36,233 nucleotides of DNA from Planctomycetota bacterium (GTDB lineage: Bacteria; Planctomycetota; Phycisphaerae; WQYP01): the NCBI GenBank assembly GCA_021805985.1, contig JAJZDN010000043.1:1-36233 (forward strand), in the 5' to 3' direction. The stretch's first letter is position 1. Every line of letters starts with the position of its first letter. Positions 2,824 to 22,915 of the stretch are shown in pieces. The notes under the pieces are model-generated. The model was not told where the DNA came from, searched no databases, and was given only the letters and a program-made list of their open reading frames with translations. Position numbers and translations under genes: made by a program.

Positions 2824-4470
2824 TTACAGGTTGTCAATGTACGCTTGAATTTCTTCCATGGGCAAGGCGGAATTTACCGCAACATATAAAATCATCACAC
2901 TAAATACTGCCACGACAATCACATCATAGGGAAATTTCAGGAAGCCCAATCCACCCGTCATACTTTTGGAACCGATGTAGTCCAAAAACCATAATCCACC
3001 CAGATACGGAAACACCCACCACGTGCTGTTCCATGGCAATGCGGCGATGCTATTATGTTTGATGACTCGCCACAGCAAGAACACCACCAGCGCTGCAGCC
3101 ACGACTGCCAGGAGAAAACTAAGCGTCGCCACCCCAGACCAGTACACAATAAGGTTAGAAATAATAAAAGTAACGGGCACCAGGATTCGGGCCATGGGCA
3201 CGCGAAATGGCCGGGCGGTGCCAGGCAAGGTGCGCCGCAGTGAAAGCAATACCACCGGCCCAATGCCGTAGGACAAGACCATCACATCCGAAATTTCATT
3301 GACCATTTTATGCCAGCTCGGAAAAGGCAGCATAAATAAACACCCCACGGCAAAGCTTACCACCCCGGCCGCCCATGGCACGCCGAAGCGGTTGAGCCGC
3401 TGCAAGGAATTGTGAATAAGCCCGGCTTCACTCATGGCACCAATGACCCGTGAGGAAGTTGTCGCGTAGATAAATCCGGTGCCGCCCGGGGATACAATGG
3501 CATCGGCATACAGCAACATGGCAAGCCAAGCCAAACCAATACCGGAAGCCAGCGCTGCCAGCGGACCCGCACCGACGGAAAATCCTTTGGCATGGTCCAG
3601 GGCACCCCAGCCATATTTGGTCAAGTCGGCAGGGCTGATCGCCATAACAAATGCCAGTTGCAGCCCCACATAAATGACGATTCCAATTACCACAGATCCG
3701 ATGACCGCGATGGGAATATTACGCTGCGGCCGGGAAGTTTCACCGGCTAATTCCACGGCCTGCCGAAACCCCAGAAAACTGAAAATAACCCCTGCTGTTC
3801 CCAAGGCGGTAAATATGCCACGAAAGTTCGAAGTCATCTGATGGGGTTGTATATGCAGGTTGGCGGTATGGTGCGCGGCAATAAGCAATCCAAAAATGGT
3901 CACCAGCGGCACGGCCAGTTTCCACCAGCCGGCCACGGTAGTAATACGCATGACCCATTTAATTCCAAACAGGTTCAAGACCGTAAAAAAGGCGAGCATC
4001 AGGACCGCAAAGCCGAAACCGGCGGGCGTCAGGGCGTGATTCTTGGGATATATTAGCCACGGCCAGATATTGGCCATATAACCCAGCGTAGCCAGCACTT
4101 CCACGGGTGCTACGGAAACGTAGCCTAAAAAAAGTATCCAGCTCCAGATACGCGACAAGAGCACGCCGTGGCTTAGATGCGGAAAATGCACGACGGCACC
4201 ACTGCGCGGAAACATCGTCGCCAATTCCGCATAGACCAGAGCCAAAAGCAAAATAGCGATGCCGCCGATCAGCCAGGAGAAAACACTTAATGGCCCGGCC
4301 TGCTGCGCAGCTTCCATTGGACCTTTGAGCCAGCCCGAACCGATAATGCCGCCAAGGCTGGCGTACAACAGGCCAATGACCCCTGCCTCACGCCGCAATC
4401 CGCTTATCTTGCCTGATGTTTCTGCCATGCCTGCCATCAACTCCTGCGCGACTTGCTCGCTGCTTACCAC
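2824..4470 (-). CDS. APC superfamily amino-acid permease (YveA-like)
   Basis: A 548-residue inner-membrane amino-acid/polyamine/organocation transporter with about 12 hydrophobic segments. The first transmembrane helix carries the unwound substrate-binding motif as GGIIGSGWLKGP, in place of the more common GTGIF. The following helix has the ELATMFPRSG motif typical of the family. The GSGW form resembles YveA-type aspartate/proton symporters, but the substrate cannot be fixed from sequence alone. The start shown is a GTG that overlaps the stop of the upstream GH92 gene by 7 bases, which implies translational coupling. An ATG 11 codons later (position 4437) has AGGAG close upstream and could be the real start. 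Being co-transcribed with a secreted mannosidase suggests import of products released from glycoproteins or other glycoconjugates. Confidence 0.88.
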   Translation of the reverse strand: MVSSEQVAQELMAGMAETSGKISGLRREAGVIGLLYASLGGIIGSGWLKGPMEAAQQAGPLSVFSWLIGGIAILLLALVYAELATMFPRSGAVVHFPHLSHGVLLSRIWSWILFLGYVSVAPVEVLATLGYMANIWPWLIYPKNHALTPAGFGFAVLMLAFFTVLNLFGIKWVMRITTVAGWWKLAVPLVTIFGLLIAAHHTANLHIQPHQMTSNFRGIFTALGTAGVIFSFLGFRQAVELAGETSRPQRNIPIAVIGSVVIGIVIYVGLQLAFVMAISPADLTKYGWGALDHAKGFSVGAGPLAALASGIGLAWLAMLLYADAIVSPGGTGFIYATTSSRVIGAMSEAGLIHNSLQRLNRFGVPWAAGVVSFAVGCLFMLPFPSWHKMVNEISDVMVLSYGIGPVVLLSLRRTLPGTARPFRVPMARILVPVTFIISNLIVYWSGVATLSFLLAVVAAALVVFLLWRVIKHNSIAALPWNSTWWVFPYLGGLWFLDYIGSKSMTGGLGFLKFPYDVIVVAVFSVMILYVAVNSALPMEEIQAYIDNL

Positions 4471-6824
4471 CTCTTCGGGCCCGTGGACAGCGACGGGGGC
4501 GCATCGCCGCGCGCCGCAGCCCAGCTTTTATTCGGGGCAGCCCCGGCGGTCACATTCCATGTGCCACCCTGAAATACCATCTGCTCCGGCAGCCACGGTT
4601 TATTAAGAGGTTTTCCATCCAGCGTCGCGGATTGGATGTACATATTTTTTCCCCCGCCGTTGGGTGTGGTAATTATGAAGGTTTTGCCGGGATGCGTCGC
4701 GTGCAAGTGGATGGTGATTTTTGCGAAGCGCGGCGTTGTGAGTTCAAAATCCGGTGCACCGGGATCCACCTGATACAATCCAATCTGCGTTAACACGTAC
4801 CAAGCTGACATTTCACCGCAATCATCATTGCCCGCACTGCCGACCTTACTCCAAGCCATTCCAAACGGCGAATCCGTAAAGGATGTATCGGCGTTTTTCT
4901 CCACCCAATATTGACTGCGCCATGGCTGGTGGCAATAGTCAAAAAGATACGGTGCTTCCAAGTCCGGCTCATTCGTGGGATCATATTGACCCGTAACAAA
5001 AAAATGCTGCAGCCGGGCCTCAAAGGGCTTGTCACCACCCATCAGCGCGATCAAGCCCTGCACATCCTCCGGGACCAGCCAGTTGTACTCCCAAGCCGAC
5101 CCTTCACAGTAAATTTGGTAGTTATACTGATCGCGTGCTTGTTTGCTTAAGGGCATCCACGCCCCCTGAGCATTTCTCCCCTGCATGAACATGGTGGCGG
5201 GGTTATACATGGAAGTATACTGCAACGCATCGCCGAACAGGATGCTGGCCGTCTGGGACTTATGTAAATCCAACGCCAGGTGCCCCAGCGAGGCGTACGC
5301 AATATCGGTTTCCTCCGCCGATGCCACATTGGTATTTATCGGAAAAATACCGCCATACCTCTGGCCGGCCAAGCTCCCATAATCGCGGACCGAACTCAAA
5401 TCGGCGTGGCCTTTGAGATAATTCGGAAAACATTGCTGAACCATCGCCCGATAGACGGCGTGGATATTAAAGTGGTGCAGCCCCGCCTGCCAAATTTCAG
5501 TCAGGCAGTTGGTTAAAGGAAGACCGTTCATGATACCGGTGGGCCGGTTCGCAAATGGCCAGCGATCGATAAATCCAAGTTGCCTGGCCATCTCCACCAC
5601 CGATTGCGCCATGTCCTGCACTCGCTGCGGCTCAATGATCGTCAACAGCGGCATTTCACTTCGGTAGATGTCCCAACCTGACCAATTGGCGTAAATATGC
5701 CGGTGGCCCGCCGGTACATGATGAATTTTATTGTCATAGCCGATGTACCGGCCATCCACATCATCAAACACATTCGGCAACAGCAGGGCATGATACAGTG
5801 CGGTGTAAAAAATCTTCCGGCGATTTAACGTACCGCCATGGACAGTAATTACCGCCAGCGCCTTGTTCCACCGGGCATGGGCCTGCGCACGAATGGCGCT
5901 GAAACTAAAATGCGGTATTTCTGCCGCCAAATTTTTCTCCGCTCCGCCCAGACTGACAAATGATATGCCAATGCGAACCTTGACCACCCTTGCATGGCTG
6001 GATACCGGATAACTTACAAAAGCTCCGATCGGTGGACCCGGAAGACGCAGCTTGGGACCCGTGCCTTTGGAGGTAATGGCCGCGCCGACATTCCGGGCTT
6101 GAACCTCTTTCCTGGCACCCGGGGCAATGGTGGCTCCCCGCCAGAGTCCGCTGGTCTTGAATGGCTGACTGAATTTCATAACAAAATAAACGGTGAAAGG
6201 TTCATTGGTTTGGCAAAACGTTAAACTCGTAACCGATCCGCTGATAGTGTGGTCGTTGACAACATGAATGCTGGAACCAACCGTGGTGGTTAAGGTGTGG
6301 CTGATGGGAACTAAAATATTGGCCTGCTTGCCGGCGGGAAATGTAAATTTTGCCATGCCGCAATGCGTGCTTGCGGCTAATTGGGCGTTAATACCCCATG
6401 TTTTCATAAACACCCGATAATAACCAGGCGAGGCTGCCTCCCGCTTGTGGCTGAAATCAAAGCCATACTGCTTGGGCTGCACCTGTACCGGGCCGGTAGT
6501 GGCAGTGAAAAACACGTCGCCATAATTCGGACATCCGCAGCCGCTGAGATGCGTCATGCTGAAACCACTGCTATGGTGCTGCTGGTAGATGTAGTAACTA
6601 TTGACGTGCATATCCGGGCTTAGTTCCACCATACCGAACGGCACGATTGCCCCCGGCACTATATCACCCCCCTGGGCGGTGCCCACAAACGGGTTAACCA
6701 ATGCGGCTAAATTCGCACCGCAGGCCATGCCGCCGGCCGGTAACATCAGCACCAAACTTACTATCACAGCTTTGGCCGCTGAAGAGAATCGCAAAAACCG
6801 TTTGGAAAACACAATCAACCTCAT
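4464..6824 (-). CDS. Secreted GH92 family alpha-mannosidase
   Basis: A 786-residue glycoside hydrolase of family 92, calcium-dependent exo-alpha-mannosidases that trim mannose from N-glycans and mannans. The family signature near the mature N-terminus is clear (VNPFVGT, then GAIVPFGMVELSPDM). The block EGSAWEYNWLVPEDVQG holds the expected acid glutamate, and GNDDCGEMSAWYVL holds the conserved aspartates and C-terminal motif. A signal peptide covers about the first 38 residues, so the enzyme acts in the periplasm or outside the cell. I chose the ATG at 6824 over a TTG at 6848, because a strong AAGGAG lies 10 bases before the ATG and the TTG would put extra residues ahead of the signal peptide. 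It overlaps the downstream permease gene, forming a two-gene operon. Confidence 0.93.
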   Translation of the reverse strand: MRLIVFSKRFLRFSSAAKAVIVSLVLMLPAGGMACGANLAALVNPFVGTAQGGDIVPGAIVPFGMVELSPDMHVNSYYIYQQHHSSGFSMTHLSGCGCPNYGDVFFTATTGPVQVQPKQYGFDFSHKREAASPGYYRVFMKTWGINAQLAASTHCGMAKFTFPAGKQANILVPISHTLTTTVGSSIHVVNDHTISGSVTSLTFCQTNEPFTVYFVMKFSQPFKTSGLWRGATIAPGARKEVQARNVGAAITSKGTGPKLRLPGPPIGAFVSYPVSSHARVVKVRIGISFVSLGGAEKNLAAEIPHFSFSAIRAQAHARWNKALAVITVHGGTLNRRKIFYTALYHALLLPNVFDDVDGRYIGYDNKIHHVPAGHRHIYANWSGWDIYRSEMPLLTIIEPQRVQDMAQSVVEMARQLGFIDRWPFANRPTGIMNGLPLTNCLTEIWQAGLHHFNIHAVYRAMVQQCFPNYLKGHADLSSVRDYGSLAGQRYGGIFPINTNVASAEETDIAYASLGHLALDLHKSQTASILFGDALQYTSMYNPATMFMQGRNAQGAWMPLSKQARDQYNYQIYCEGSAWEYNWLVPEDVQGLIALMGGDKPFEARLQHFFVTGQYDPTNEPDLEAPYLFDYCHQPWRSQYWVEKNADTSFTDSPFGMAWSKVGSAGNDDCGEMSAWYVLTQIGLYQVDPGAPDFELTTPRFAKITIHLHATHPGKTFIITTPNGGGKNMYIQSATLDGKPLNKPWLPEQMVFQGGTWNVTAGAAPNKSWAAARGDAPPSLSTGPKRW

Positions 6825-6885
6825 ATAAAATAAACTCCTTAACCGCAAGGCTTAAAGCTCTTCCCACCTTGATTGCAATCCGCAA

Positions 6886-7002: not shown

Positions 7003-7704
7003 CTAGACTTGGATCTTCCTGGGCCGTCCTTCGGGGCGAATGGTGTGCTCCAGGTTTAAGGTTAGCGCTGTCTGGCGCAGCCATTGCTCATCACCGAATG
7101 GCCGGCTGCGATTTTCGCTGGCCTTCAGTTGAATCAATTCTTTTTTCGTTGGCACCGCGTTGACGGCGGCGGTCCACGGCTTCAAGGCCGGCCGGCGGCC
7201 TTGTGGGCCCGCGGACAGCATTTTCCTCATGGCGCGACTATGTTCATCGTCGGAGGTTTGATGGCGCAGCCACAAGCTTCCCCAGCGCCACTGCTGGGCT
7301 CGTTTTACTACCCCCGCAGATAAGGCATTGCGTTCCACATGGCGACATACCGTGCCTAGAGGCTCACCGGATTGAACCGGGAACGCCTTGAACCTTCCCT
7401 GGTACAGAGGTCCCCCTCTCACCGAACCGTGGGCTATCCGCCAGCGCAGGGAGTGGGTATGCGCTAAGGCACGAAAATAAGCCGTCACCTCATCATCGCT
7501 GCGCGGCCAAACCACAAAATGCCAATGGTTCTTCATCAGACACCAGGAAATGATCCGCAAGGGCACGCGCCGGTACGCCTCAAGCATGACTTGCTCAAAC
7601 GCGGCATAGTCCTGGTCACCATGAAACAGGCTGATGCGCCCCGCCGACCGGTTCAGTACGTGGTAAACATATCCCCCGGGACAATATCGTGCTTTTCTAG
7701 CCAT
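7003..7704 (-). CDS. REP-associated tyrosine transposase (RAYT, Y1/IS200-like)
   Basis: A 233-residue single-strand DNA transposase of the Y1 HUH superfamily, RAYT branch. The N-terminal PGGYVYHVLNRSAGR motif is typical. The HUH motif appears as HWH in KNHWHFVVWP (about residues 60-70), followed by the family block GPLYQGRFKAFPV and then HVERNALSAGVV. Such proteins are usually single-copy domesticated transposases that mobilise REP palindromes rather than themselves. No inverted or subterminal repeats marking a complete IS are evident on either side. The only nearby dyad is a short CCGGC/GCCGG pair at 7838-7850 in the gap to atpD. The gene follows atpD in the same direction, in the place where atpC normally sits. 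It ends with a basic C-terminal region. Confidence 0.9.
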   Translation of the reverse strand: MARKARYCPGGYVYHVLNRSAGRISLFHGDQDYAAFEQVMLEAYRRVPLRIISWCLMKNHWHFVVWPRSDDEVTAYFRALAHTHSLRWRIAHGSVRGGPLYQGRFKAFPVQSGEPLGTVCRHVERNALSAGVVKRAQQWRWGSLWLRHQTSDDEHSRAMRKMLSAGPQGRRPALKPWTAAVNAVPTKKELIQLKASENRSRPFGDEQWLRQTALTLNLEHTIRPEGRPRKIQV

Positions 7705-7901
7705 GGTGTCATGCTACCGCAGACCACCAAATCCGTCAAACTAGCTACGTCCCCGTTTCGCTGCAGGGAGTAAAGAGGATGGTTTCGGCAATAGTTTTGG
7801 CGGGGATGGGGGCGAGGCGCATGAGGGTGCTTTACCACCGGCAGAGCCGGCGGCTTTGTGGGGGAAACGGCGGGTTTTGGGGGGATGGGGTGCGGCCGCT
7901 T

Positions 7902-9350
<1,449 letters not shown>

Positions 9351-9438: not shown

Positions 9439-10335
9439 CTACTTTAAAGCCTCGACCCCGCCCATAAGTTCCGACAATTCACTGGTAATTTGCGATTGCC
9501 GAGCCCGATTGTATTCGCGCGTCAAGTGTTTGATCATGCTGTCCGCATTTTCCGTGGCCGCCGACATCGCCATCATCCGGGCGATCTGCTCAGAAACCGA
9601 TGCGTCCACAAAGGCTTGAAACGTGGTCGCCCGTACCATCGTCGGCACCAGGCTTACCAGCAACTCTCCGGCGTCCGGTGAATATTCACTGCAAGCATCA
9701 AGCCGACTGGGCCGCGATTTGCCCGATTCTTCGATTTCCAGCGCTTGCACCGGCAGCACATCCGCCGCGGTAGCTTTCTGCTGGCCGACGCTGATAAATC
9801 GCATATAAACAATTTTGATTGCATCCACCGTCTGGCTGGAAAAATCATCCATCAGAGCTTGGGCAACCGGCAGCACTTCCTCAAACGTGGCATTATCGCT
9901 GATGCCGGTGTAGGCGGCCTTGACCTCGCGCCGGGCGAAGCGGAAGTAAGCCGCCCCTTTTCGCCCAGCCACGTGGATATCCACCTGCTGTCCGGCTTCT
10001 TCTAACTGCCGGATATTTTGCATCGCCACGCGCAGTATTTGACTGTTGTAACCGCCCGCCAAACCACGGTTACTGGTAACTACCAGAATAGCGGTTCTGC
10101 GGCAGGGAGTGCGCCTGGCCAGCAGGGGGTGCCGCTGAAGTTCTGCCGAACCTTGCGCCCCCAGCAGTGTATCTTTAACAATGGCGTCAAGCTTATCAAG
10201 ATAGGGCCGGGTGCCTTTAGCGCGTTTCAAGGCGCGCTGAAATCTGGCGGTGGCCACCATCTGCATCACGCGTGTGATTTTGTAGATGTTGCGAACCGCC
10301 TTGCGTCGCTTAGTTATTTCTCTGGCCTTCGCCAT
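9439..10335 (-). CDS. atpG: F1Fo ATP synthase subunit gamma
   Basis: A 298-residue gamma subunit, the central rotor stalk of F1. The N-terminal helix begins MAKAREITKRRKAVRNIYKIT and continues with TRVMQMVATARFQRA, the conserved region that contacts the alpha/beta catch loops. The block VVTSNRGLAGGYN and the C-terminal LTREYNRARQSQITSELSEL are both diagnostic. Length is typical for bacterial gamma (about 290). It lies 34 bases downstream of atpA and 100 bases upstream of atpD. That gap has no obvious promoter, so the genes are probably co-transcribed. Confidence 0.97.
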   Translation of the reverse strand: MAKAREITKRRKAVRNIYKITRVMQMVATARFQRALKRAKGTRPYLDKLDAIVKDTLLGAQGSAELQRHPLLARRTPCRRTAILVVTSNRGLAGGYNSQILRVAMQNIRQLEEAGQQVDIHVAGRKGAAYFRFARREVKAAYTGISDNATFEEVLPVAQALMDDFSSQTVDAIKIVYMRFISVGQQKATAADVLPVQALEIEESGKSRPSRLDACSEYSPDAGELLVSLVPTMVRATTFQAFVDASVSEQIARMMAMSAATENADSMIKHLTREYNRARQSQITSELSELMGGVEALK

Positions 10336-10369: not shown

Positions 10370-11989
10370 TTATCGTTTCGGAGCCGCCGCTTCCCGTTGC
10401 TGCGGGGCCTGACCAACTGCCGCGCCCGGCATGGCGGGAAGACCTTCAATTTTCTTGCGGGTTAATGGAGAAACGTTGGAAAAATTTTTGATGACTTCTA
10501 CAACTTTGGCTTCCAGTTCAGGCGTCAGTTCGCGTTTCTGCGCCAGTTCTGTGCGAACCGCTGCCCCTGAGGCGTTCCAGAAATCGAGAAAATCGCGTTC
10601 CCACTGGCCCACATCCTTCAAAGCGACGGTATCCAAAAATCCCTGGGTGGCAGCGTAAATAACCACGATCTGATCGATGACATCCATGGGCTGATACTGC
10701 GGCTGCTTAAGGATTTCCACCATTCGGGCACCGCGGTCCAACTGCTTCTGGGTGGCCGAGTCAAGGTCTGTACCAATTTGGGTAAAGGCTTCCAGGGCAC
10801 GATACGCCGCGAGATCTAACCGCAACGATGCCGCGACTTTTTTATGTTTCATCGCCTTGATTTGGGCCGCTCCGCCGACGCGGCTTACCGAAATACCCAC
10901 GTTAATGGCTGGACGCACGCCGGCGAAAAACAGATCCGGTTCCAGATAAATCTGGCCGTCGGTGATGCTGATGACGTTGGTGGGAATATAGGCGGATACT
11001 TCGCCTTCCTGCGTTTCAATAACCGGCAACGCGGTTAAAGAGCCGCCGCCATTTTCCTTGGACAGTTTGCATGCCCGTTCCAGCAATCGGCTGTGGAGAT
11101 AAAACACATCGCCGGGATACGCCTCACGTCCGGGCGGCCGGCGCAGCAGCAGAGATAATTGCCGATACGCCTGGGCCTGTTTGGAAAGATCATCATAAAC
11201 GCACAGGGTTGCTTTACCCTGCCACATGAAGTGCTCGGCCATCGCACAGCCGGCATACGGTGCGATATATTGCAGCGGCGCGGAATCTGAGGCTCCCGCC
11301 ACCACCACGATGGTGTAGTCCATCGCGCCGTTTCGCTTTAACACGTCTACCACGCCGGCCACAGTTGATTCCTTGCCGCCAATGGCAACGTACACGCAAA
11401 TAACTTCATCCGGCGTGCCGGCAAATTTCTTCTGATTGATGATTGCGTCAATGGCAATGGCGGTCTTACCGGTTTTACGGTCACCAATGATCAATTCACG
11501 CTGACCGCGGCCGATAGGAATCATGGAGTCAATAGCCTTGATACCGGTTTGCAGCGGCTCTTTTACCGGCTGCCGATCGGCAATTCCAGGGGCGATCACA
11601 TCGACCTTGCGGCGATCCGAGGTCTGAATTGGTGATCCGCCATCAATGGGCTGTCCAAGTGCATTGACCACCCGACCCAGGAGGGCCCGCCCTACCGGCA
11701 CGGAAAGCAGTTCTCCGGTGGATTTGACGACATCGCCTTCTTTGATGTGCGAGCAGTCACCGAAGATAACCGCACCGACGGTCTCTTCTTCCAGGTTAAA
11801 CACCTGACCATACATATCATTGCCAAAATCCAGCATCTCTCCGGCCATGGCGTTGGACAGGCCATAGATCCGCGCTATACCGTCGCCGACTTCAATGACT
11901 TTACCAACCTGACTTACGTCAAGCCGATCTTCAAAACCGGCAATTTCTTTTTCCAGGACTGATGCTATTTCGTCAACTCTGAATTTCAT
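10370..11989 (-). CDS. atpA: F1Fo ATP synthase subunit alpha
   Basis: A 539-residue non-catalytic nucleotide-binding alpha subunit of F1. The P-loop GDRKTGKT is at residues 169-176, and the arginine finger region [10 protein letters not shown], which completes the beta active site, is intact. The N-terminal [18 protein letters not shown] stretch is the beta-barrel domain. The protein is about 30 residues longer than many bacterial homologues because of a C-terminal tail rich in Ala, Pro and Gln ([18 protein letters not shown]). The start ATG has AGGGTG five bases upstream. It sits between atpH and atpG in the standard order. Confidence 0.98.
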
Positions 11990-12074: not shown

Positions 12075-12668
12075 TCAAGCCTGCGCGGCTGGAGCCTTAT
12101 TAAGTCCGGCCATCATACCGCTGTGCAACTGGGACTTCATGGCCCGTAAGCGTCGCTTTACGGAACCATCAATAAACATATCTCCAATTTTTAACTGTAC
12201 GCCCCCCAGCAAAGATGCATCCACCGAGACGGTTAAATCAATCTCCCGGCCAAGGCTCCGCCCGGCGGACTCGGCGATACGCTGTTTTTCATCTTCAGCC
12301 AGCGGCTGCGCACAGACGACCTCAATGCTTAAGCGGTTGTTGCGGATACGCTGCACTTCGTCAAAGGCCACAGTAAATTCCCGCAACATATCCAGCCGGT
12401 CCCGCCGCGCCATGGCTTGCAGCACGGATAGCGTTAAAGCGTTCACGGAGCCGACTACGGCTTGCTCAAGGAGTTTTAATTTCTCGGCGGTATTCACATT
12501 GGCGGCCTTGAGGAACCGATCCAGCCGCGGAGCTGCGGCCAGCAAAGCTCCGAGAGATTCCATGTCCGCCTTCACATCCGCCGTCTGACCGGCCCGCTGT
12601 GCCGAATCATAAAGCGCAGCAGCATACACCCGCCCGATAGCCATGTATTGCGATTCTTTTTGTTCCAT
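12075..12668 (-). CDS. atpH: F1Fo ATP synthase subunit delta
   Basis: A 197-residue delta subunit (OSCP), the peripheral-stalk cap joining the b subunit to alpha. The opening region with AIGRVYAAALYDSAQR and the C-terminal block VSVDASLLGGVQLKIGDMFIDGSVKRRL are typical of the family; the latter is its most conserved motif. A helical middle section lies between them. It is the fourth structural gene of the operon, with 71 bases to atpF and 85 bases to atpA. The Shine-Dalgarno signal is weak. An internal ATG in QYMAIGRVYA is an alternative start about eight codons in. Confidence 0.95.
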   Translation of the reverse strand: MEQKESQYMAIGRVYAAALYDSAQRAGQTADVKADMESLGALLAAAPRLDRFLKAANVNTAEKLKLLEQAVVGSVNALTLSVLQAMARRDRLDMLREFTVAFDEVQRIRNNRLSIEVVCAQPLAEDEKQRIAESAGRSLGREIDLTVSVDASLLGGVQLKIGDMFIDGSVKRRLRAMKSQLHSGMMAGLNKAPAAQA

Positions 12669-12739: not shown

Positions 12740-13387
12740 TTAATTCATGGTGCCAGCCAACTGAGCCAGCGATTCATCCAGAAGCTTTCGCTGATCATTG
12801 GCGTTGATTTCACGGCCGATGATTCGCGATGCGATTTCCACGCTGATATCCGCCGTTCGACTGGCAATATCTGACAAGGCCTGCTGCTTGGCAGCCTCAA
12901 TATCGCGTAAGGCCTGATCCTTCAGGGCACGCGATTCGGATTCCGCCCGTTGGCGAATTAAATCGGCAGCTTTGGCGGCATCCGCCTTGGCCTGCTGGAG
13001 TTGTTGCGAGGCCTGGCGTTGCACTTCCGCAATTTTTTCCTCTAATTGCTTGCGCGTCTGTTCCACTTGTGCCTGAGCATCTGCGGCGGCTTGAATGCTG
13101 TCACGAATGGCGTTTTCCCGGCTCTTTAATCCATCAATAAGTGGACGCCATGCATATTTGCCCAATACCGTCAGCAGCACCACAAATATCAGCAAGGTAA
13201 TCAGGGCCATGCCGGCGTTAATCGACATCAATGAGGCACCGCCACCGCCACCGCCGCCAGAGGTCGCCGCGTGTGCCATACTTGTTGACGCGCCAAGGGC
13301 CGCTACGGCACTGACCGCGGCCCACCGCATGGCGGTGGAACGATCAACATTTCGCGCTTTTGCAGATTTGCTTTCAACGCATTTCAT
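12740..13387 (-). CDS. atpF: F1Fo ATP synthase subunit b with signal-peptide-like N-terminus
   Basis: A 215-residue b subunit forming the peripheral stalk. An N-terminal extension precedes the membrane anchor: basic residues, a hydrophobic Ala-rich stretch and SMAHAAT, which looks like a cleavable Sec signal ending near residue 40. A run of seven glycines follows, then the true anchor (MALITLLIFVVLLTVLGKYAW, about residues 60-80), and then a long Ala/Gln/Glu-rich coiled coil. Canonical b subunits begin at the anchor, so the extension is unusual, although I recall similar extensions in planctomycete b subunits. The ATG at 13387 was chosen because AAGGTGA lies upstream, in preference to a GTG two codons earlier. 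Confidence 0.94.
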   Translation of the reverse strand: MKCVESKSAKARNVDRSTAMRWAAVSAVAALGASTSMAHAATSGGGGGGGASLMSINAGMALITLLIFVVLLTVLGKYAWRPLIDGLKSRENAIRDSIQAAADAQAQVEQTRKQLEEKIAEVQRQASQQLQQAKADAAKAADLIRQRAESESRALKDQALRDIEAAKQQALSDIASRTADISVEIASRIIGREINANDQRKLLDESLAQLAGTMN

Positions 13388-13499
13388 GAACACTCACCTT
13401 TTTTCCAACCTGGAATACCGATACATCTATACCGGCATGTAACCCGGCGGGGGCAAAATAAGCTCCGCCACCCATCGGGAAACGTCAGTTGGAAGTTTA

Positions 13500-13802
13500 T
13501 TAAAGACCACCGTTCCGAATTAGAACGATCATCACCAGCACCAGCAGAAGGAATGTAAATCCTTCAATAATGGCTGCCGCCAGAAAGAACTGCGTGCGGA
13601 TGGTGTTAATCAATTCCGGTTGACGGGCGGTGGCTTCGCACATGCTGCCGCCGATGGCACCTACGCCTGCACCAGCGCCGCCTACACCGGCTCCGCCGCC
13701 GATTAAAGCGCCGGCAATTTCGATGGCCTGGGTTAATTCGTGCATCGAGTTAACGCCCTGGGTCATCACCGCGTGTCCGGTTTGAACTGTTGTTGGATCC
13801 AT
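13500..13802 (-). CDS. atpE: F1Fo ATP synthase subunit c
   Basis: A 100-residue c subunit, the proteolipid of the rotor ring. Helix 1 carries the Gly-rich packing motif (GGGAGVGGAGAGVGAIGG, about residues 35-52). The polar loop has R-Q-P at 60-62, and helix 2 carries the ion-binding glutamate at residue 80 in AAAIIEGFTF. The residue after the glutamate is Gly, and the Gln, Ser/Thr and Tyr ligands of sodium-type rings are absent, so proton coupling is the better reading. The ATG at 13802 has AGGAG nine bases upstream. An in-frame GTG at 13859 would add 19 residues without support. The first ~22 residues before helix 1 are longer than in most c subunits. Confidence 0.95.
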   Translation of the reverse strand: MDPTTVQTGHAVMTQGVNSMHELTQAIEIAGALIGGGAGVGGAGAGVGAIGGSMCEATARQPELINTIRTQFFLAAAIIEGFTFLLLVLVMIVLIRNGGL

Positions 13803-13873
13803 TTGATAAAACTCCTGTTGCCTTAAACCTTCTATAAATTCAGCATCACGCCCCCACACGGGGCGTGTAGTTA

Positions 13874-14863
13874 TTAATGTTCTGCCGACATCGCCTCGGC
13901 AATATACGCCGCACTTAACAGCGTAAATATGTACGCCTGCAAAAACGCCTCCAGCAGGTGCAAGGCCTCAAAGGCCGTGCCAAATAAAATCACCGGCACA
14001 CCCGTAACGGTTCTGACAAAATACCCGCCGAAGGAAAATATAATGCTCACCAGTACCGCCACCACCAGTGGGCCGGACATCATCACCGCGAATAAACGCA
14101 TACATAATGCCAGCGGCTTAACGAACGTTCCCAGCAATTCCAGCACAAACATCAGTGGCCAGATGACCCATGGAACCCCCGGCGGCACAATATGCTTGAG
14201 ATATTTTGCAACGCCTATTACTGCTGCCACCGGCCAGGCTCGCGTGGAAGCACCATCAGCGGCATGATGCGTACCGGTAATATCTGCAGCAGCGTGACCC
14301 GTACGGATATGCGGCGTGTGATGCCGTCGGGCGGTTCGGATAAATTCTGCCAACCCCGACACGTGCACCGTAAAGAATGTGCAAACTGCCAAGGTCGCGG
14401 TGACGCTTAAATCTCCGGTGGCACCGCCCCAGAATTCCGGAATGTGGGTACCGCAGGCTGAATTAAATAATTGAATCAATTCATCAACGGGCAACATTCC
14501 GAACAGATCAGCGAACAAAATGAAGAAGAATGCCGTCCATAGATAAGGAGTAAATGTTACCGCCCATTTGCCCAGCATAGGTTCAAAGGTGTCGCGCTGG
14601 AGGAAAACCAGTAATGCTTCAAAAAAATTACGAAATCCTGTGGGCACCGGCTTGGTTTTCATCCGCCGAGCCATGGCGGGAAAAATAGCCAGCATCAAAC
14701 CCGCGGAAAGTAATAGCATTAGAACGTGATTGTTAAAATAAAAGCTCTGGCCGAAAAGATGAAATAAGGGGTAGGGATATAAATTATGGGCAACGGTCCC
14801 ATTAAGTACGTTGATTTCGGCTAGACCCCCCGGTCTGATGACATTGGGCAGCGTAAAAACCAT
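13874..14863 (-). CDS. atpB: F1Fo ATP synthase subunit a with His-rich insertion
   Basis: A 329-residue a subunit, the stator half-channel protein of Fo. The essential arginine is at about residue 256 in the motif KPLALCMRLFAVMMSG, and the final helix has EALHLLEAFLQAYIFTLL, typical of the second half-channel. The protein is longer than the usual ~250-270 residues. One reason is a hydrophilic His/Ala/Thr-rich insertion at about residues 177-210 that includes two His-His pairs, placed between membrane helices. In the arginine motif the common Asn (RLFANM) is Val. It lies 71 bases upstream of the c subunit's chosen start. Confidence 0.96.
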   Translation of the reverse strand: MVFTLPNVIRPGGLAEINVLNGTVAHNLYPYPLFHLFGQSFYFNNHVLMLLLSAGLMLAIFPAMARRMKTKPVPTGFRNFFEALLVFLQRDTFEPMLGKWAVTFTPYLWTAFFFILFADLFGMLPVDELIQLFNSACGTHIPEFWGGATGDLSVTATLAVCTFFTVHVSGLAEFIRTARRHHTPHIRTGHAAADITGTHHAADGASTRAWPVAAVIGVAKYLKHIVPPGVPWVIWPLMFVLELLGTFVKPLALCMRLFAVMMSGPLVVAVLVSIIFSFGGYFVRTVTGVPVILFGTAFEALHLLEAFLQAYIFTLLSAAYIAEAMSAEH

Positions 14864-15011: not shown

Positions 15012-15440
15012 TCATACTTTGGAGTGTTTAATCACCCATGAAGACGCTACGCTTTCAGCAATTAACAGCACAAAATAGAATGCCGCCAACCATAACAACG
15101 TCACGGTTTTATGCAGATTCGGCGGTGCCAAAGCAATAACGATGATCGCGCCCAGCGCCACACCCACCAGCCGCGTCATGTTCGCCAGAACTGCACAACG
15201 CAGCAGCAAAATCGCGGAGCGCCCGATCAGCACTACCATCGGCAGCACCGCCAGCAGGCCTACCACCGCACTTACCAGCCCGGCCGCCAGCATTTCCCGC
15301 ATATACAACGGACGATGCAGCAGCGGCATTATCAGCATGGCCACCACCATTGCCGCACCAGTTGCCACCAGCGGCGTAACGGTCAATCCCAACCGCAGCC
15401 AGGAATTGGGAACCGGAGGTATTTCCGCCTGATCAGTCAT
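15012..15440 (-). CDS. AtpI-like small membrane protein of the ATP synthase operon
   Basis: A 142-residue hydrophobic protein with about four predicted membrane helices, in the position of atpI. AtpI-type proteins help assemble the c ring or supply magnesium in some bacteria. Sequence identity to classical AtpI is low to my eye, so the assignment rests on size, topology and position. The open frame extends upstream to 15551. The likely start is the ATG at 15440, whose ATGACTGA overlaps the stop of the preceding gene by 8 bases and fits translational coupling. The 148 bases between it and atpB hold no clear gene. Confidence 0.72.
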   Translation of the reverse strand: MTDQAEIPPVPNSWLRLGLTVTPLVATGAAMVVAMLIMPLLHRPLYMREMLAAGLVSAVVGLLAVLPMVVLIGRSAILLLRCAVLANMTRLVGVALGAIIVIALAPPNLHKTVTLLWLAAFYFVLLIAESVASSWVIKHSKV

Positions 15441-15834
15441 CTGAATCAGTGCCCTTCTTAGAGGCCTCTTGGCCATCCGTTGTGCCGTTTTTACCCGCCG
15501 CAGTTTCATCCTGATGCAGCAACATTTTAATTTGGAGATATAAATCCCCAATGACGGCCACGCAGATCATGATGACCGTAGCAATTCCATGCCAGCGGAA
15601 TGTATGATCCAACCATTGACCCAGCAGGCCAAAAATCAATACCACCGCCAGGAATTCAATTCCCATCGAGGTAAAGCGCCGCAGTCCCGATGCCCGCCTC
15701 GCAGGACTTTCCTGCCCGGAAGACGATCCCGAAACCCCAGTCTTTAATTTATTGGACGCATGACGCTCCAAGCGGTCCAATGCTGATTTAGCACCGCCTG
15801 TTTTCGTTTCTTTCGTCGGCTCATTTTGTACCAT
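15433..15834 (-). CDS. AtpZ/AtpQ-like subunit, first gene of the ATP synthase operon
   Basis: A 133-residue protein. The N-terminal ~65 residues are hydrophilic (Lys/Ser/Gly-rich), followed by two membrane helices: MGIEFLAVVLIFGLLGQWLD, then IATVIMICVAVIGDLYLQ. The two-helix hairpin with G-x-x-LD resembles the AtpZ/AtpQ family (putative F0F1 ATPase assembly or magnesium/calcium channel subunit), which commonly heads atp operons before atpI. The start is uncertain. The open frame reaches a TTG at 15891, but that lies inside the promoter -35 box. The ATG at 15834 follows the predicted transcription start by only ~20 bases. Confidence 0.75.
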   Translation of the reverse strand: MVQNEPTKETKTGGAKSALDRLERHASNKLKTGVSGSSSGQESPARRASGLRRFTSMGIEFLAVVLIFGLLGQWLDHTFRWHGIATVIMICVAVIGDLYLQIKMLLHQDETAAGKNGTTDGQEASKKGTDSDD

Positions 15835-15862
15835 GGCCGCTACCGTCCACCAACTACCCTCC

Positions 15863-15891
15863 TTTGTACTATTTTTCACAAAGTATGTCAA
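15863..15891 (-). promoter_or_regulatory. Sigma70-type promoter of the ATP synthase operon
   Basis: On the minus strand a perfect -35 TTGACA (15891-15886) and a -10 TACAAA (15868-15863, 4 of 6 matches) are separated by the optimal 17 bases. Transcription would begin near 15856, leaving a very short leader before the ATG at 15834. It lies in the 144-base gap between the first atp gene and anmK. A weaker possible -10 (TATACT) lies at 15962-15957. Confidence 0.7.
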
Positions 15892-19357: not shown

Positions 19358-19456
19358 ATATGCCCTCACTTGCCAAGGCCCTGCCCGAAACACTATATTC
19401 GCGTGGCGGTGAAGAGTAGTACCTGTTTTGAGGGTTGATTGAAAGGCCTTATTTCT

Positions 19457-22400
19457 ATGACCTCGGTAAAAGAACCGGATTCCAACTTATTCCCCGCCTC
19501 GCATCGTGCCAATATGGCCGGATATATTCGCCTGCGGCTTAAAGCCTTGGGATTGGCCTCCATCCATGAAGATCACCACGATGGAGCGCTGGACGAATTG
19601 GCGGAAGGGCTTCTGGCCAATTTCCGTCAGAAAAGCCGACTGCTGAAAGACTATCGCGTCCCCGTGGATCAGCGCATAGAAGCGTTTTTAAACCGTCAGC
19701 TTGGCCCGCTGCCCCAGCCGTTGCGTCTGCCTGCATTAACGTTCAGCCTGAATCGCGCGGGCATTGCCCGTGAATTGTCACTACCCCGTCATGGCGATCA
19801 TATTGAAAGTTCCTACGTGTCAAGTTATCGCCTGCGCAATGGCGTGCTGCACAATCCGCGCAGCGACCGCCGCACCACCAAAGGAACTTTCCACGTTACA
19901 GATTGCGGCCTGCCAGTACCGGCGGACAAAATTGCCGTGCCACCCGCGGTTTACGCGGCCTTATTTCAACAGGCTCTTCAGCCGCCGCGGGAGTTGCTCA
20001 CACTGCCCTACGCCTCCGACGTGCCCGGCGGCGTAGCGGTCTTCTGCTCCCTGCTGTTACGGCCCATTGTTGTACCGGAAGTGCCAGGCGTGAGTCCTGA
20101 AAAAAGAATGGAAATTCATTTTTTCGCTCCCGGCAGCCTGGTCAGCAACCTGGATTTCGTTGAATCCATATTTGGTAACGCCGGCGACCCTGCGTTGCCG
20201 GAAAATGATGCCGCCTTGGATGTTGAACACTGGACCGGTCACACCGGCTGCGTGATCTTGGCCCCCCACCTTACGCAATGCACAAAAAAGCAACTCGGCC
20301 TGCCCCATTGGGATCATGCCACGGATCGGCAGAAACGCGACGGCATGTGCTGGAAAACGGCGGAAGAGCTGTATAACGGCGGCTCGGCGTTTAAGCTTAC
20401 CTGCCGCAGCGCCGCCGGCGTGATGGTCACACTGATTGCCGACAACTATTTCGGCTACTGCAAAAAGGAAGTTAAAACTCAGATCAGCTTTGCCGCCAAT
20501 CTTCTGGGCAACGCCGAAGAGGAACATGCCGGCGGCGCGGTGGCCTTTGCCAGTTACAGCCTGGGCACCGAATACACGCACCGCGAAAAATACTGGAACG
20601 GTCGAACCTTTGAAGATCTCGTACGTGATTATGGCACCATCATGACTGTCATGCCGGAAGGTTATGGCATTGATAAACGCTACCCGGACATTATTTACCT
20701 GCCCCATGAAGTTCACATGGATTTATATAAACTTCTCATAACGTGGAAAAAGGATGGCAACGAACACCATATTCCTCTGCTGGCGGACAAAATATATCTG
20801 ACTCCGTCCGGGGAGAAACTCTTTCTTAATAAGCATCCCGGCTCCGAGAGATTCCGTATTGTTGTCACCACCGCTGAAGGAACTTTCTGCCATAAGCCCT
20901 GCACAGTCAGCGGAGGCGGCAAAAGCGAAATCAGCAAAAGCCTCGCAGATTACATGATCTATGGTCCGATTTATATCAACAACCTTGAAGCGGACCTTCA
21001 TGAAGTACAAGCCATTCTCAATAAAGATCATTCCGTCCGCTGGGTGGCCGGAAAGCAGCCCCATGATTATGTCGCGACGGCCAGCCGCCCGATTCTTAGT
21101 CCGCGCCGTTCCCTGGGCAGTGTCATTAAATTGCTTACGCCCAGTGCGGATTACACCGATGAATACAACCGCTGGCTGACCGCCATCCCGGTTAATATCC
21201 TCGCGCTGGTATTTTTAATTAAGCGACTGTATCAGCCGGAATGGGGTGATAATTGGCGGCATCATTTTTCCGTGGACATTATCAATGGCGAAATGGGCCA
21301 TGAACTTAAAATGGATGAACGCAAGGCCGCGGGAACGTATCTACGGGTAGGCCTGTTGCCCAATGGCGCGTGGAATACCTTTAAAGTCCGGCAGGATTTT
21401 TTTCCCGCCGCCAAGGTGCAGATGGAGGATGACATCACCGCCTCTACGGTGATTCCGGCCCGCCTGTTGCCGTACCGTATCAGCTCCACCGACGCCCCAT
21501 CGGTTAAACTCACCATTAATGCCGAAACGCGCTTATTCCAGCGACCTGATGACGCGGTTTATCCCGGCTTGGATAAACAAACCGAATTGGATATGGCCAA
21601 GGATGACAATTTCCTTTCCAACTATGAACCCCTGGATACGCAGGCAGTCGGGCAGATCGTGGATCGAATTACCGAATTTGACGCCTATACCGAACCACTT
21701 AAGCGCATGTTGCGGCAAGCCGCCAACAGCGGACGTGGATATGTTGTTTCCTCCGCGCATCCAAGAATTGTCGACGGAAAGCCCAGCAAAAATCCGCGCT
21801 ATCTTCAATACCGGCCGGATTTGGCGCGCCCCCGGGAAACGTACCTTGCCCAGATGGGTGTCCGCCTGGCCCGGGCACTGCCGCTGAATGTGCCGATTGC
21901 ATTTCCGGTTGATGCAGTACTTTTGGGCCGCCGTAACAATCCGCCCGATACCAAAGCGGGCATTCGAGCCTTGGCCGTTTACAACCCCATCCATTATCAG
22001 GAATTGCCTGAACTGTTTATGGATTTTATCTGCTCGCTTACTGGAGCCAGCCCTTCCACCACCGGCGCCGGAAGTGAGGGGGCCTTAACTAAAGGTCCCT
22101 TTAACGCCCTGTTAACCACCGCCGATCTTAACGCTGCTCTGGTCAGCTACGTGCTGACGGATCTGGCTGGATTTTCATCCGCCGCGGGCTACGCCGGCCC
22201 CCAGCGCCGCTTTGGCCATGACATCAGCCTGCTGATTCCGGAACTCTGGTGTCGGCTCAAGCCGCAGGAACGCAATCCCGCATTTCTCATTGCGGGCGGA
22301 TACCTTGAGAAAATAGAAGACTTTCAATACGAAGGCAAAACAATTCCCGCCAGCCGCCTGGGCTATCGCGTGACTGCCCGCTTCATGCGGACATTCCTAG

Positions 22401-22915
22401 GCCGCATTTTTGATAACCCCGCCCGCGTGTTTGACGAAGCCGTTCTTAAGCCGGAACTTCAGGGGCTTGATGTATTTGTTGACGGCATTATGAACATTGC
22501 GGAAACGCAGCAGCGCGTGGCGTTGCAATATTTTGAGGATGGTTCGGTGCAGCAGGCCTGCCCGCCGATTCAGGCGATTTTGCACATCATGGCCTACGGC
22601 CAATTTGAAGGCAAAGATATTCGCCACCCGGAAATCCGCCGCATGTTCACACGCGATCATGTCATGTCCAGCAACTGGTATAAAAAACGTCTGGCCGCTA
22701 AACAAATGGTGGATATCAACCTTTGGACCCGACACGTGGCCTACCTCAAAGCCTACATCGAGCAAACCCGCGATGAAACCGGTCTGGAGGAATTACAGCT
22801 TTCCACCCGCCTGGACAAAGCCCAGGAGCAACTCGCCAATGTCAGCCGGGGCGGTTATCTTGAATCTCTGATTGGCACCATCGGCGTAGACCCGTGCCTG
22901 TATGGCCCGGCGTAA
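19457..22915 (+). CDS. Candidate PPi-type phosphoenolpyruvate carboxykinase
   Basis: A 1152-residue soluble protein with no signal peptide or membrane segments. Size and overall character fit the PPi-dependent PEP carboxykinases (EC 4.1.1.38), proteins of about 1100-1200 residues that interconvert PEP, CO2 and phosphate with oxaloacetate and pyrophosphate. A P-loop-like SGGGKSEISKS lies at about residues 482-495. It resembles the kinase-1a loops of ATP- and GTP-dependent PEPCKs without matching either. Other well-ordered blocks include AHPRIVDGKPSKNPRYLQYRP and GAGSEGALTKGPFNALLTT. I recognise the family by size and motif feel, not alignment, so the name is tentative. The ATG at 19457 has AAAGG ten bases upstream; a TTG at 19439 with GAGGG four bases upstream is a real alternative. 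folD follows after 12 bases. Confidence 0.55.
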   Translation: MTSVKEPDSNLFPASHRANMAGYIRLRLKALGLASIHEDHHDGALDELAEGLLANFRQKSRLLKDYRVPVDQRIEAFLNRQLGPLPQPLRLPALTFSLNRAGIARELSLPRHGDHIESSYVSSYRLRNGVLHNPRSDRRTTKGTFHVTDCGLPVPADKIAVPPAVYAALFQQALQPPRELLTLPYASDVPGGVAVFCSLLLRPIVVPEVPGVSPEKRMEIHFFAPGSLVSNLDFVESIFGNAGDPALPENDAALDVEHWTGHTGCVILAPHLTQCTKKQLGLPHWDHATDRQKRDGMCWKTAEELYNGGSAFKLTCRSAAGVMVTLIADNYFGYCKKEVKTQISFAANLLGNAEEEHAGGAVAFASYSLGTEYTHREKYWNGRTFEDLVRDYGTIMTVMPEGYGIDKRYPDIIYLPHEVHMDLYKLLITWKKDGNEHHIPLLADKIYLTPSGEKLFLNKHPGSERFRIVVTTAEGTFCHKPCTVSGGGKSEISKSLADYMIYGPIYINNLEADLHEVQAILNKDHSVRWVAGKQPHDYVATASRPILSPRRSLGSVIKLLTPSADYTDEYNRWLTAIPVNILALVFLIKRLYQPEWGDNWRHHFSVDIINGEMGHELKMDERKAAGTYLRVGLLPNGAWNTFKVRQDFFPAAKVQMEDDITASTVIPARLLPYRISSTDAPSVKLTINAETRLFQRPDDAVYPGLDKQTELDMAKDDNFLSNYEPLDTQAVGQIVDRITEFDAYTEPLKRMLRQAANSGRGYVVSSAHPRIVDGKPSKNPRYLQYRPDLARPRETYLAQMGVRLARALPLNVPIAFPVDAVLLGRRNNPPDTKAGIRALAVYNPIHYQELPELFMDFICSLTGASPSTTGAGSEGALTKGPFNALLTTADLNAALVSYVLTDLAGFSSAAGYAGPQRRFGHDISLLIPELWCRLKPQERNPAFLIAGGYLEKIEDFQYEGKTIPASRLGYRVTARFMRTFLGRIFDNPARVFDEAVLKPELQGLDVFVDGIMNIAETQQRVALQYFEDGSVQQACPPIQAILHIMAYGQFEGKDIRHPEIRRMFTRDHVMSSNWYKKRLAAKQMVDINLWTRHVAYLKAYIEQTRDETGLEELQLSTRLDKAQEQLANVSRGGYLESLIGTIGVDPCLYGPA

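What the first reader, a model, noticed from the sequence alone, without database searches (positions are those of the whole stretch)
7003..7901. ATP synthase operon lacks atpC; a RAYT transposase occupies its place
All other F1Fo genes are present in standard order, but only 197 bases follow atpD before a same-strand RAYT gene, and no epsilon-like frame exists there. Epsilon is required for coupling and regulation, so it must be encoded elsewhere, be replaced, or be lost. Insertion or rearrangement linked to the RAYT is possible.
Basis: partly seen in the sequence, partly recalled or inferred. Interest (0 to 1): 0.5.

Follow-up and report, generated by a model that had tools for sequence, protein, structure and literature searches.

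The report
ATP synthase epsilon gene moved away
In this uncultured planctomycete the last gene of the ATP synthase cluster is not lost but sits alone elsewhere in the genome, an old rearrangement that the mobile-element gene now beside the cluster did not cause, and related bacteria show the same cluster in several more scattered pieces.

Summary
In detail: the window has atpI-like, atpB, E, F, H, A, G and D in standard order, no atpC or remnant, and a same-strand RAYT gene 197 bases after atpD. The suggested cause does not hold. The assembly has one epsilon gene, full length, alone on another contig (G000:C175:52631-53035, minus). In 22 of 22 family genomes where both genes were found they lie on different contigs. 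Wider comparison shows graded dispersal of the atp operon in Phycisphaerae: C apart in this family; G, D and C each apart in f6 and f15; B-E-F-H, A, G, D and C at five places in f4. rplB-rpsH linkage is kept in 17 of 18 genomes checked, so this is not general operon decay. Best reading: an ordinary F1Fo synthase whose epsilon comes from a stand-alone gene, probably the first step of a stepwise dismantling; a single origin is likely, not proven. A lone epsilon is already known from Aquificae and Beggiatoa.

The parts
7902..9350 (-). atpD, F1 beta, now the last gene of the operon
   Evidence: TIGR01039 761 bits, cut-off 463
7705..7901 (.). atpD-RAYT gap where atpC would be expected; no epsilon or remnant
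   Evidence: filter-off HMM and tblastn negative
7835..7857 (-). REP-like palindrome, one of 79 copies in the genome
   Evidence: 79 matches with up to 3 mismatches, reversed-pattern control 0; common frame seen in 30 of the 79 loci, a few of which show the same copy
7003..7704 (-). RAYT (REP-associated tyrosine transposase family); HWH motif present, conserved Tyr replaced by His; a late arrival at this site
   Evidence: Y1_Tnp above Pfam cut-off; alignment of 12; at atpD in 2 of 23 family regions
9439..10335 (-). atpG, F1 gamma
   Evidence: TIGR01146 272 bits, cut-off 194
10370..11989 (-). atpA, F1 alpha
   Evidence: TIGR00962 788 bits, cut-off 484
12075..12668 (-). atpH, delta/OSCP
   Evidence: PF00213 133 bits, cut-off 22.3
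12740..13393 (-). atpF, Fo b
   Evidence: PF00430 76 bits, cut-off 28
13500..13859 (-). atpE, Fo c
   Evidence: PF00137 29.6 bits, cut-off 24
13874..14863 (-). atpB, Fo a
   Evidence: PF00119 152 bits, cut-off 33.9; TIGR01131 113 bits, cut-off 102.6
15433..15891 (-). atpI-like ATPase_gene1 protein
   Evidence: PF09527 29 bits, cut-off 26.6

Best explanation
The cell makes an ordinary F1Fo ATP synthase. Eight of its genes (atpI-like, B, E, F, H, A, G, D) form the usual operon in the window; epsilon comes from a single stand-alone atpC on another part of the genome. Shown: atpC is the only epsilon found in the assembly, is full length and aligns over most of its length to solved epsilon chains, has GGAG six bases before its ATG, and forms one clade with the other epsilons of the family. 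Inferred: it is transcribed on its own and its product assembles into F1. The separation happened before the family radiated, probably in an ancestor shared with two other Phycisphaerae orders, in which the operon later broke up further (G and D, then A). The RAYT with its REP-like palindrome came to lie downstream of atpD later and is unrelated to the move.
For: One PF02823 match in the genome, 64 bits against a cut-off of 27, in a 134-aa ORF, 52 kb into a 157-kb contig. It matches solved chains (2rq6 over residues 9-126, E 2.7e-12). Of 28 family genomes, 22 have both atpC and atpD found, and in 22 of 22 they are on different contigs; in 21 of the 22 the contig runs at least 1.4 kb past atpD (G026 only 152 bases). 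In single-contig genomes G029 and G056 of other families the two are over 1 Mb apart. atpD loci: family 13 of 13 (of 24 genomes with atpD) have G upstream and no C; order of G048 30 of 30 and order of G032 17 of 17 have neither G nor C within about 1.5 kb; intact controls 8 of 9 have both. F1 tree: f1+f6+f15+f4 one clade, SH-aLRT 93. Epsilon tree: 24 family rows one clade, 96. rplB and rpsH stay within 6.5 kb in 17 of 18 genomes checked, the 18th (own) being cut at a contig end.
Against: The own epsilon is below the NCBIfam epsilon cut-offs (TIGR01216 61.1 against 67.25), and Pfam shows only the N-terminal domain. The first F1 tree, with f2 and a simpler model, did not recover the clade of split families; in the second its support is not starred, and f1+f9 is not rejected (p-AU 0.22). 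In the epsilon tree f4 groups with f12 and L194, not with f1/f6/f15. Neighbours of atpC are shared only between some genera of the family, so no single new site can be shown. There are no expression data.
Confidence: 0.9

Rival explanations
1. The RAYT or its REP elements displaced or deleted atpC from behind atpD in this genome.
For: RAYT and a REP-like palindrome sit exactly where atpC would be.
Against: G000 and G007 alone, 2 of 23 regions, have this RAYT at atpD; G002, G004 and G006 of the same genus have a convergent TPR-protein gene there and no atpC (TPR assignment from G002); the split is family-wide. Both RAYT copies at atpD have His at the position that is Tyr in the ten other aligned homologues.
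Confidence: 0.03
2. Assembly or binning artefact: atpC really follows atpD and was misplaced.
For: G000 is a 197-contig draft.
Against: atpD and atpC both lie inside contigs with other genes around them; five other same-genus genomes give the same atpC neighbours; single-contig genomes G029 and G056 of related families show distances over 1 Mb.
Confidence: 0.02
3. The native atpC was lost and a foreign epsilon gene was acquired elsewhere.
For: Epsilon is short and diverges fast; f4 epsilon groups away from f1/f6/f15.
Against: Family epsilons are one clade (96) and lie with f6 and f15 (93), much as in the F1 tree.
Confidence: 0.05
4. atpC left the operon independently in this family and in the orders of f6 and of f4/f15, rather than once.
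For: Further separate cases exist: f3, and named locus L231 with no C in the 4 kb after D (minimum of 3 changes); f10 G059 has its own partial dispersal; backbone support is modest.
Against: The better F1 tree joins the three groups (93).
Confidence: 0.3

Closest known systems
Split F1Fo loci of Aquificae and Beggiatoa (Koumandou and Kossida 2014, PMC4154653, passages seen)
   Same: The locus is cut between beta and epsilon and at other junctions, so epsilon is encoded apart from beta.
   Different: Different phyla. That paper lists planctomycetes (2 species) among lineages whose locus is not split. Here the split marks a family and whole orders sampled in Phycisphaerae and comes in graded states.
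Two-part atp loci of cyanobacteria and Bacteroidetes, beta-epsilon apart from the rest (PMC4154653 and PMC5709465, passages seen)
   Same: atp genes divided between loci, conserved over large clades.
   Different: There beta and epsilon stay together; in this family epsilon is apart and beta stays with gamma.
RAYT/REP system
   Same: A Y1_Tnp-family gene with an HWH motif beside a palindrome that is repeated in the genome.
   Different: Below the NCBIfam cut-off, and the conserved Tyr is His in both copies at atpD.

Membership tests
F1 epsilon subunit (atpC), off-window gene G000:C175:52631-53035 | Pfam epsilon beta-sandwich domain PF02823 above gathering score | tested here: met
   64.2 bits against 27; 63.4
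F1 epsilon subunit (atpC), off-window gene G000:C175:52631-53035 | NCBIfam TIGR01216 equivalog cut-off | tested here: not met
   61.1 against 67.25 bits; the 18 other NCBIfam models hit are all epsilon models and all below their cut-offs. Filed as epsilon on Pfam, solved structures and being the sole copy, not on this model.
F1 epsilon subunit (atpC), off-window gene G000:C175:52631-53035 | Aligns over both domains to solved epsilon chains | tested here: met
   2rq6 residues 9-126, E 2.7e-12; 7p2y 7-133, E 2.2e-6; 27 distinct chains in all, some of them the homologous mitochondrial delta
F1 epsilon subunit (atpC), off-window gene G000:C175:52631-53035 | Binds gamma and c-ring, couples and regulates | not testable with these tools
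   needs biochemistry
RAYT | Y1 transposase domain above Pfam cut-off | tested here: met
   PF01797 35.8 against 23
RAYT | NCBIfam REP_Tyr_transpos cut-off | tested here: not met
   42.9 against 80 bits
RAYT | HUH motif | tested here: met
   HWH in the alignment; the motif's role is recalled
RAYT | Catalytic Tyr | tested here: not met
   RHVERN in window and G007; Tyr at that position in the 10 other aligned homologues; that this is the catalytic Tyr is recalled
RAYT | REP palindromes near the gene and across the genome | tested here: met
   79 copies, one 131 bases from the RAYT start; that this RAYT acts on them was not tested

The most novel reading that the evidence does not exclude
One clade of Phycisphaerae took its ATP synthase operon apart from the 3' end in order: epsilon left first (this family), then gamma and beta each became single genes (order of f6, and f15), then alpha (f4), leaving Fo plus delta (B-E-F-H) as the last linked block, while the ribosomal S10-spc cluster stayed linked. 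Subunit ratio must then be set by separate promoters and translation rates rather than by co-transcription.
Probability: 0.55. Interest if true: 0.6.

Novelty: new variant of a known kind. Interest (0 to 1): 0.42.

Why it matters
The atp operon is a textbook case of conserved gene order, often explained by the need for fixed subunit ratios and ordered assembly (PMC5709465, passages, argues this way). A set of living relatives with one, two, four and five atp loci, and with the rplB-rpsH linkage kept, would let one test how far co-transcription is needed for stoichiometry. It also qualifies a published statement, based on two species, that planctomycetes keep the locus whole: in the named sample that fits Planctomycetia (26 of 29 loci with G-D-C) but not Phycisphaerae (5 of 21).

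Tried and rejected
Looked for a decayed atpC behind atpD with tblastn and a filter-off HMM: nothing. Looked for a common new home of atpC to show that one event moved it: in 34 regions, neighbours inside the family are shared only between genera g1 and g4 (a ClpX-type zinc-finger-like protein, 24.9 bits against a Pfam cut-off of 27) and between g2 and g11; hits between families differ in distance and strand and look generic. Tried to date the split by tree: the first tree (56 rows, of which 10 of the 80 named loci) left the backbone open; the second, without f2, with 10 of the 22 f1 rows and a mixture model, gave the clade. I dropped f2 because of its 0.94 branch and left out G037 because its atpD is only 53% identical and its gamma is below the family cut-off. 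In the count of changes G044, whose contig ends in atpD, was coded intact and L197 was left out. General operon decay was set aside by one control, rplB-rpsH. The PADLOC scan of three large window proteins was empty. Literature: nine searches. Those naming Phycisphaer- terms gave 0 papers, 6 papers seen as listing only and 12 listed of 157; none of the titles concerns atp gene dispersal there, but only two papers, PMC4154653 and PMC5709465, were opened, as passages, and the library lacks most subscription journals.

Full report
Observation. The window carries the atp operon on the minus strand: an ATPase_gene1-like atpI, then atpB, atpE, atpF, atpH, atpA, atpG and atpD. atpD ends at 7902; the next ORF, 7003-7704 on the same strand, starts 197 bases on. 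No epsilon gene or remnant is in the window.

Where epsilon is. The genome (4.68 Mb, 197 contigs, 95.5% complete) has one match to the epsilon domain PF02823, at G000:C175:52784-53020, in a 134-aa ORF at C175:52631-53035 (coordinates by way). It aligns over most of its length to solved chains (27 distinct sequences at E up to 0.001, epsilon or the homologous mitochondrial delta; best 2rq6, E 2.7e-12, residues 9-126). It is above the Pfam cut-off but 6 bits under TIGR01216. It stands alone: a divergent ClpX-type zinc-finger-like gene on one side and, on the other, a convergent ORF of no NCBIfam family. Six bases before its ATG is GGAG.

Age of the split. I searched 61 genomes (own plus 60 relatives, 17 families, one class) for atpC and atpD. 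Both were found in 46. In the own family (f1), 22 of 22 have them on different contigs; the other 6 of 28 f1 genomes lack one or both genes in the assembly. Outside f1, 9 of 24 are split (f3 1, f4 3, f6 4, f15 1) and 15 of 24 have the two genes within about 2 kb. The split is real where contigs are whole: in G029 (one 3.88-Mb contig) and G056 (one 3.62-Mb contig) they are over 1 Mb apart whichever way round. In f1, alpha, gamma and beta genes share a contig in 21 of the 23 genomes where all three were found; the other two (G020, G021) have them on short contigs.

The RAYT is a late arrival. It is found downstream of atpD in 2 of 23 f1 regions examined, this window and G007 of the same genus (some regions are short: L068 1.7 kb, L081 0.3 kb, L083 1.0 kb). 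In G002, G004 and G006 of the genus a convergent gene (a TPR protein in G002) follows atpD directly and there is no atpC. In the F1 tree G006, without the RAYT there, is the sister of G000, so its gain or loss is recent. The family of this RAYT is multi-copy and patchy: 4 matches in the own genome, one of them a fragment, and 33 of 61 genomes with any at E up to 1e-10. Between atpD and the RAYT lies a palindrome with 79 copies in the genome (up to 3 mismatches; reversed-pattern control 0); G007 has a diverged copy at the same place. Among 12 aligned homologues (the best locus of each of 12 genomes; the own genome's other copies were not aligned) the Tyr of the RYVERN-like motif is His only in the two copies at atpD; that it is the catalytic Tyr is recalled. 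So this RAYT is probably inactive as a nuclease, and it does not explain the missing atpC.

Wider pattern. Positions of atpA, atpG and atpB and of atpH, F, E around them give these states. f1 and f3: B, A, G, D together, C apart. f6 (4 genomes) and f15 (1): B-E-F-H-A together, G, D and C each apart. f4: A, G, D, C and B apart in G030, G039 and G056, with E-F-H beside B in the two checked (G030, G056); in G056 B, A, G, D and C lie at 0.75, 3.40, 1.04, 1.44 and 0.32 Mb of one contig. f10 G059: B-E-F-H-A, G, and D with C 1.9 kb on. Extending the sample, atpD has neither G nor C within about 1.5 kb in 30 of 30 atpD loci from the order of G048 (31 genomes searched, 30 with atpD; two loci, L359 and L360, are cut near one end) and in 17 of 17 from the order of G032 (18 searched); f1 gives 13 of 13 G-D without C, intact controls 8 of 9 G-D-C, the ninth being G059. 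Among the 80 named loci, of 21 placed by NCBI in Phycisphaerae 13 have gamma with no atpD after it, 5 have G-D-C, 1 has G-D without C and 2 are cut; of 29 in Planctomycetia 26 have G-D-C, 1 gamma without atpD, 1 no C and 1 is cut; the other 30 have no class or belong elsewhere.

Specific to atp. rplB and rpsH are within 6.5 kb in 17 of 18 of these genomes; in the own genome a piece of rpsH lies at the contig end about 5 kb from rplB. So the dispersal is not general decay of operons, at least against this one control.

History. A tree of AtpA+AtpG+AtpD (42 rows, LG+C20) joins f1, f6, f15 and f4 (SH-aLRT 93) and f6+f15+f4 (97); the fewest changes of the 'C off' state are 3. The earlier tree with f2 and a simpler model left this open, and a tree with f1+f9 is not rejected (p 0.22). 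The epsilon tree has f1 as one clade (96) near f6 and f15 (93), but f4 elsewhere on a long branch. A single early loss of linkage of C, then of G and D, then of A is the simplest account, not a proven one.

Names. Equal contig lengths point to G018 as JAJYZF010000009 (isolate FK5.bin10), G014 as JAJYFE010000040 (DBS1-1.bin91) and G016 as CALCHA010000187 ('uncultured Phycisphaerales bacterium'). The class is therefore taken as Phycisphaerae; the family's formal name was not found.

Known or not. Koumandou and Kossida 2014 (PMC4154653, passages) report beta/epsilon splits in Aquificae and Beggiatoa and an unsplit locus in planctomycetes (2 species). PMC5709465 (passages) lists common incomplete units, none with a lone epsilon in the passages seen. 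I found nothing on Phycisphaerae in nine searches, most results seen as listings only. A lone epsilon is thus a known kind; the clade and the graded dispersal are what looks new.

Noticed in passing
window 7835-7857 and 78 other places in G000: REP-like palindrome with a longer common frame (CACAAAGCCGCCGGCTCTGCCGGYGGTGG), 79 copies; which RAYT, if any, serves it was not worked out.
   Followed up: partly
L064 (G007) 5466-6155: A 230-aa ORF of no NCBIfam family lies between atpD and the RAYT in G007 but not in the window; in the window a GH92 gene (4464-6848) stands where same-genus genomes have the convergent TPR-protein and following genes.
   Followed up: partly
G031, G040, G049 (f5), G036, G053 (f10), G046, G054 (f11): No F-type alpha, beta, gamma, epsilon or a subunit found at the thresholds used, four of the seven in genomes at least 95% complete: possible loss of the F-type ATP synthase.
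   Followed up: no
L259, L261, L262, L268: In 4 of 4 Myxococcota loci gamma is not followed by atpD within the stretch held; possible further lineage with a split locus.
   Followed up: no
L255 and L199: L255 is named Leptolyngbya but came in among planctomycete loci (not placed in a tree); L199, named Thermoanaerobaculia, falls inside Phycisphaerae in the F1 tree: mislabelled bins or gene transfer.
   Followed up: no
window 25535-31975 and 19439-22915: A 2146-aa RHS-repeat protein, and a 1158-aa protein without any Pfam match at E up to 0.001.
   Followed up: no
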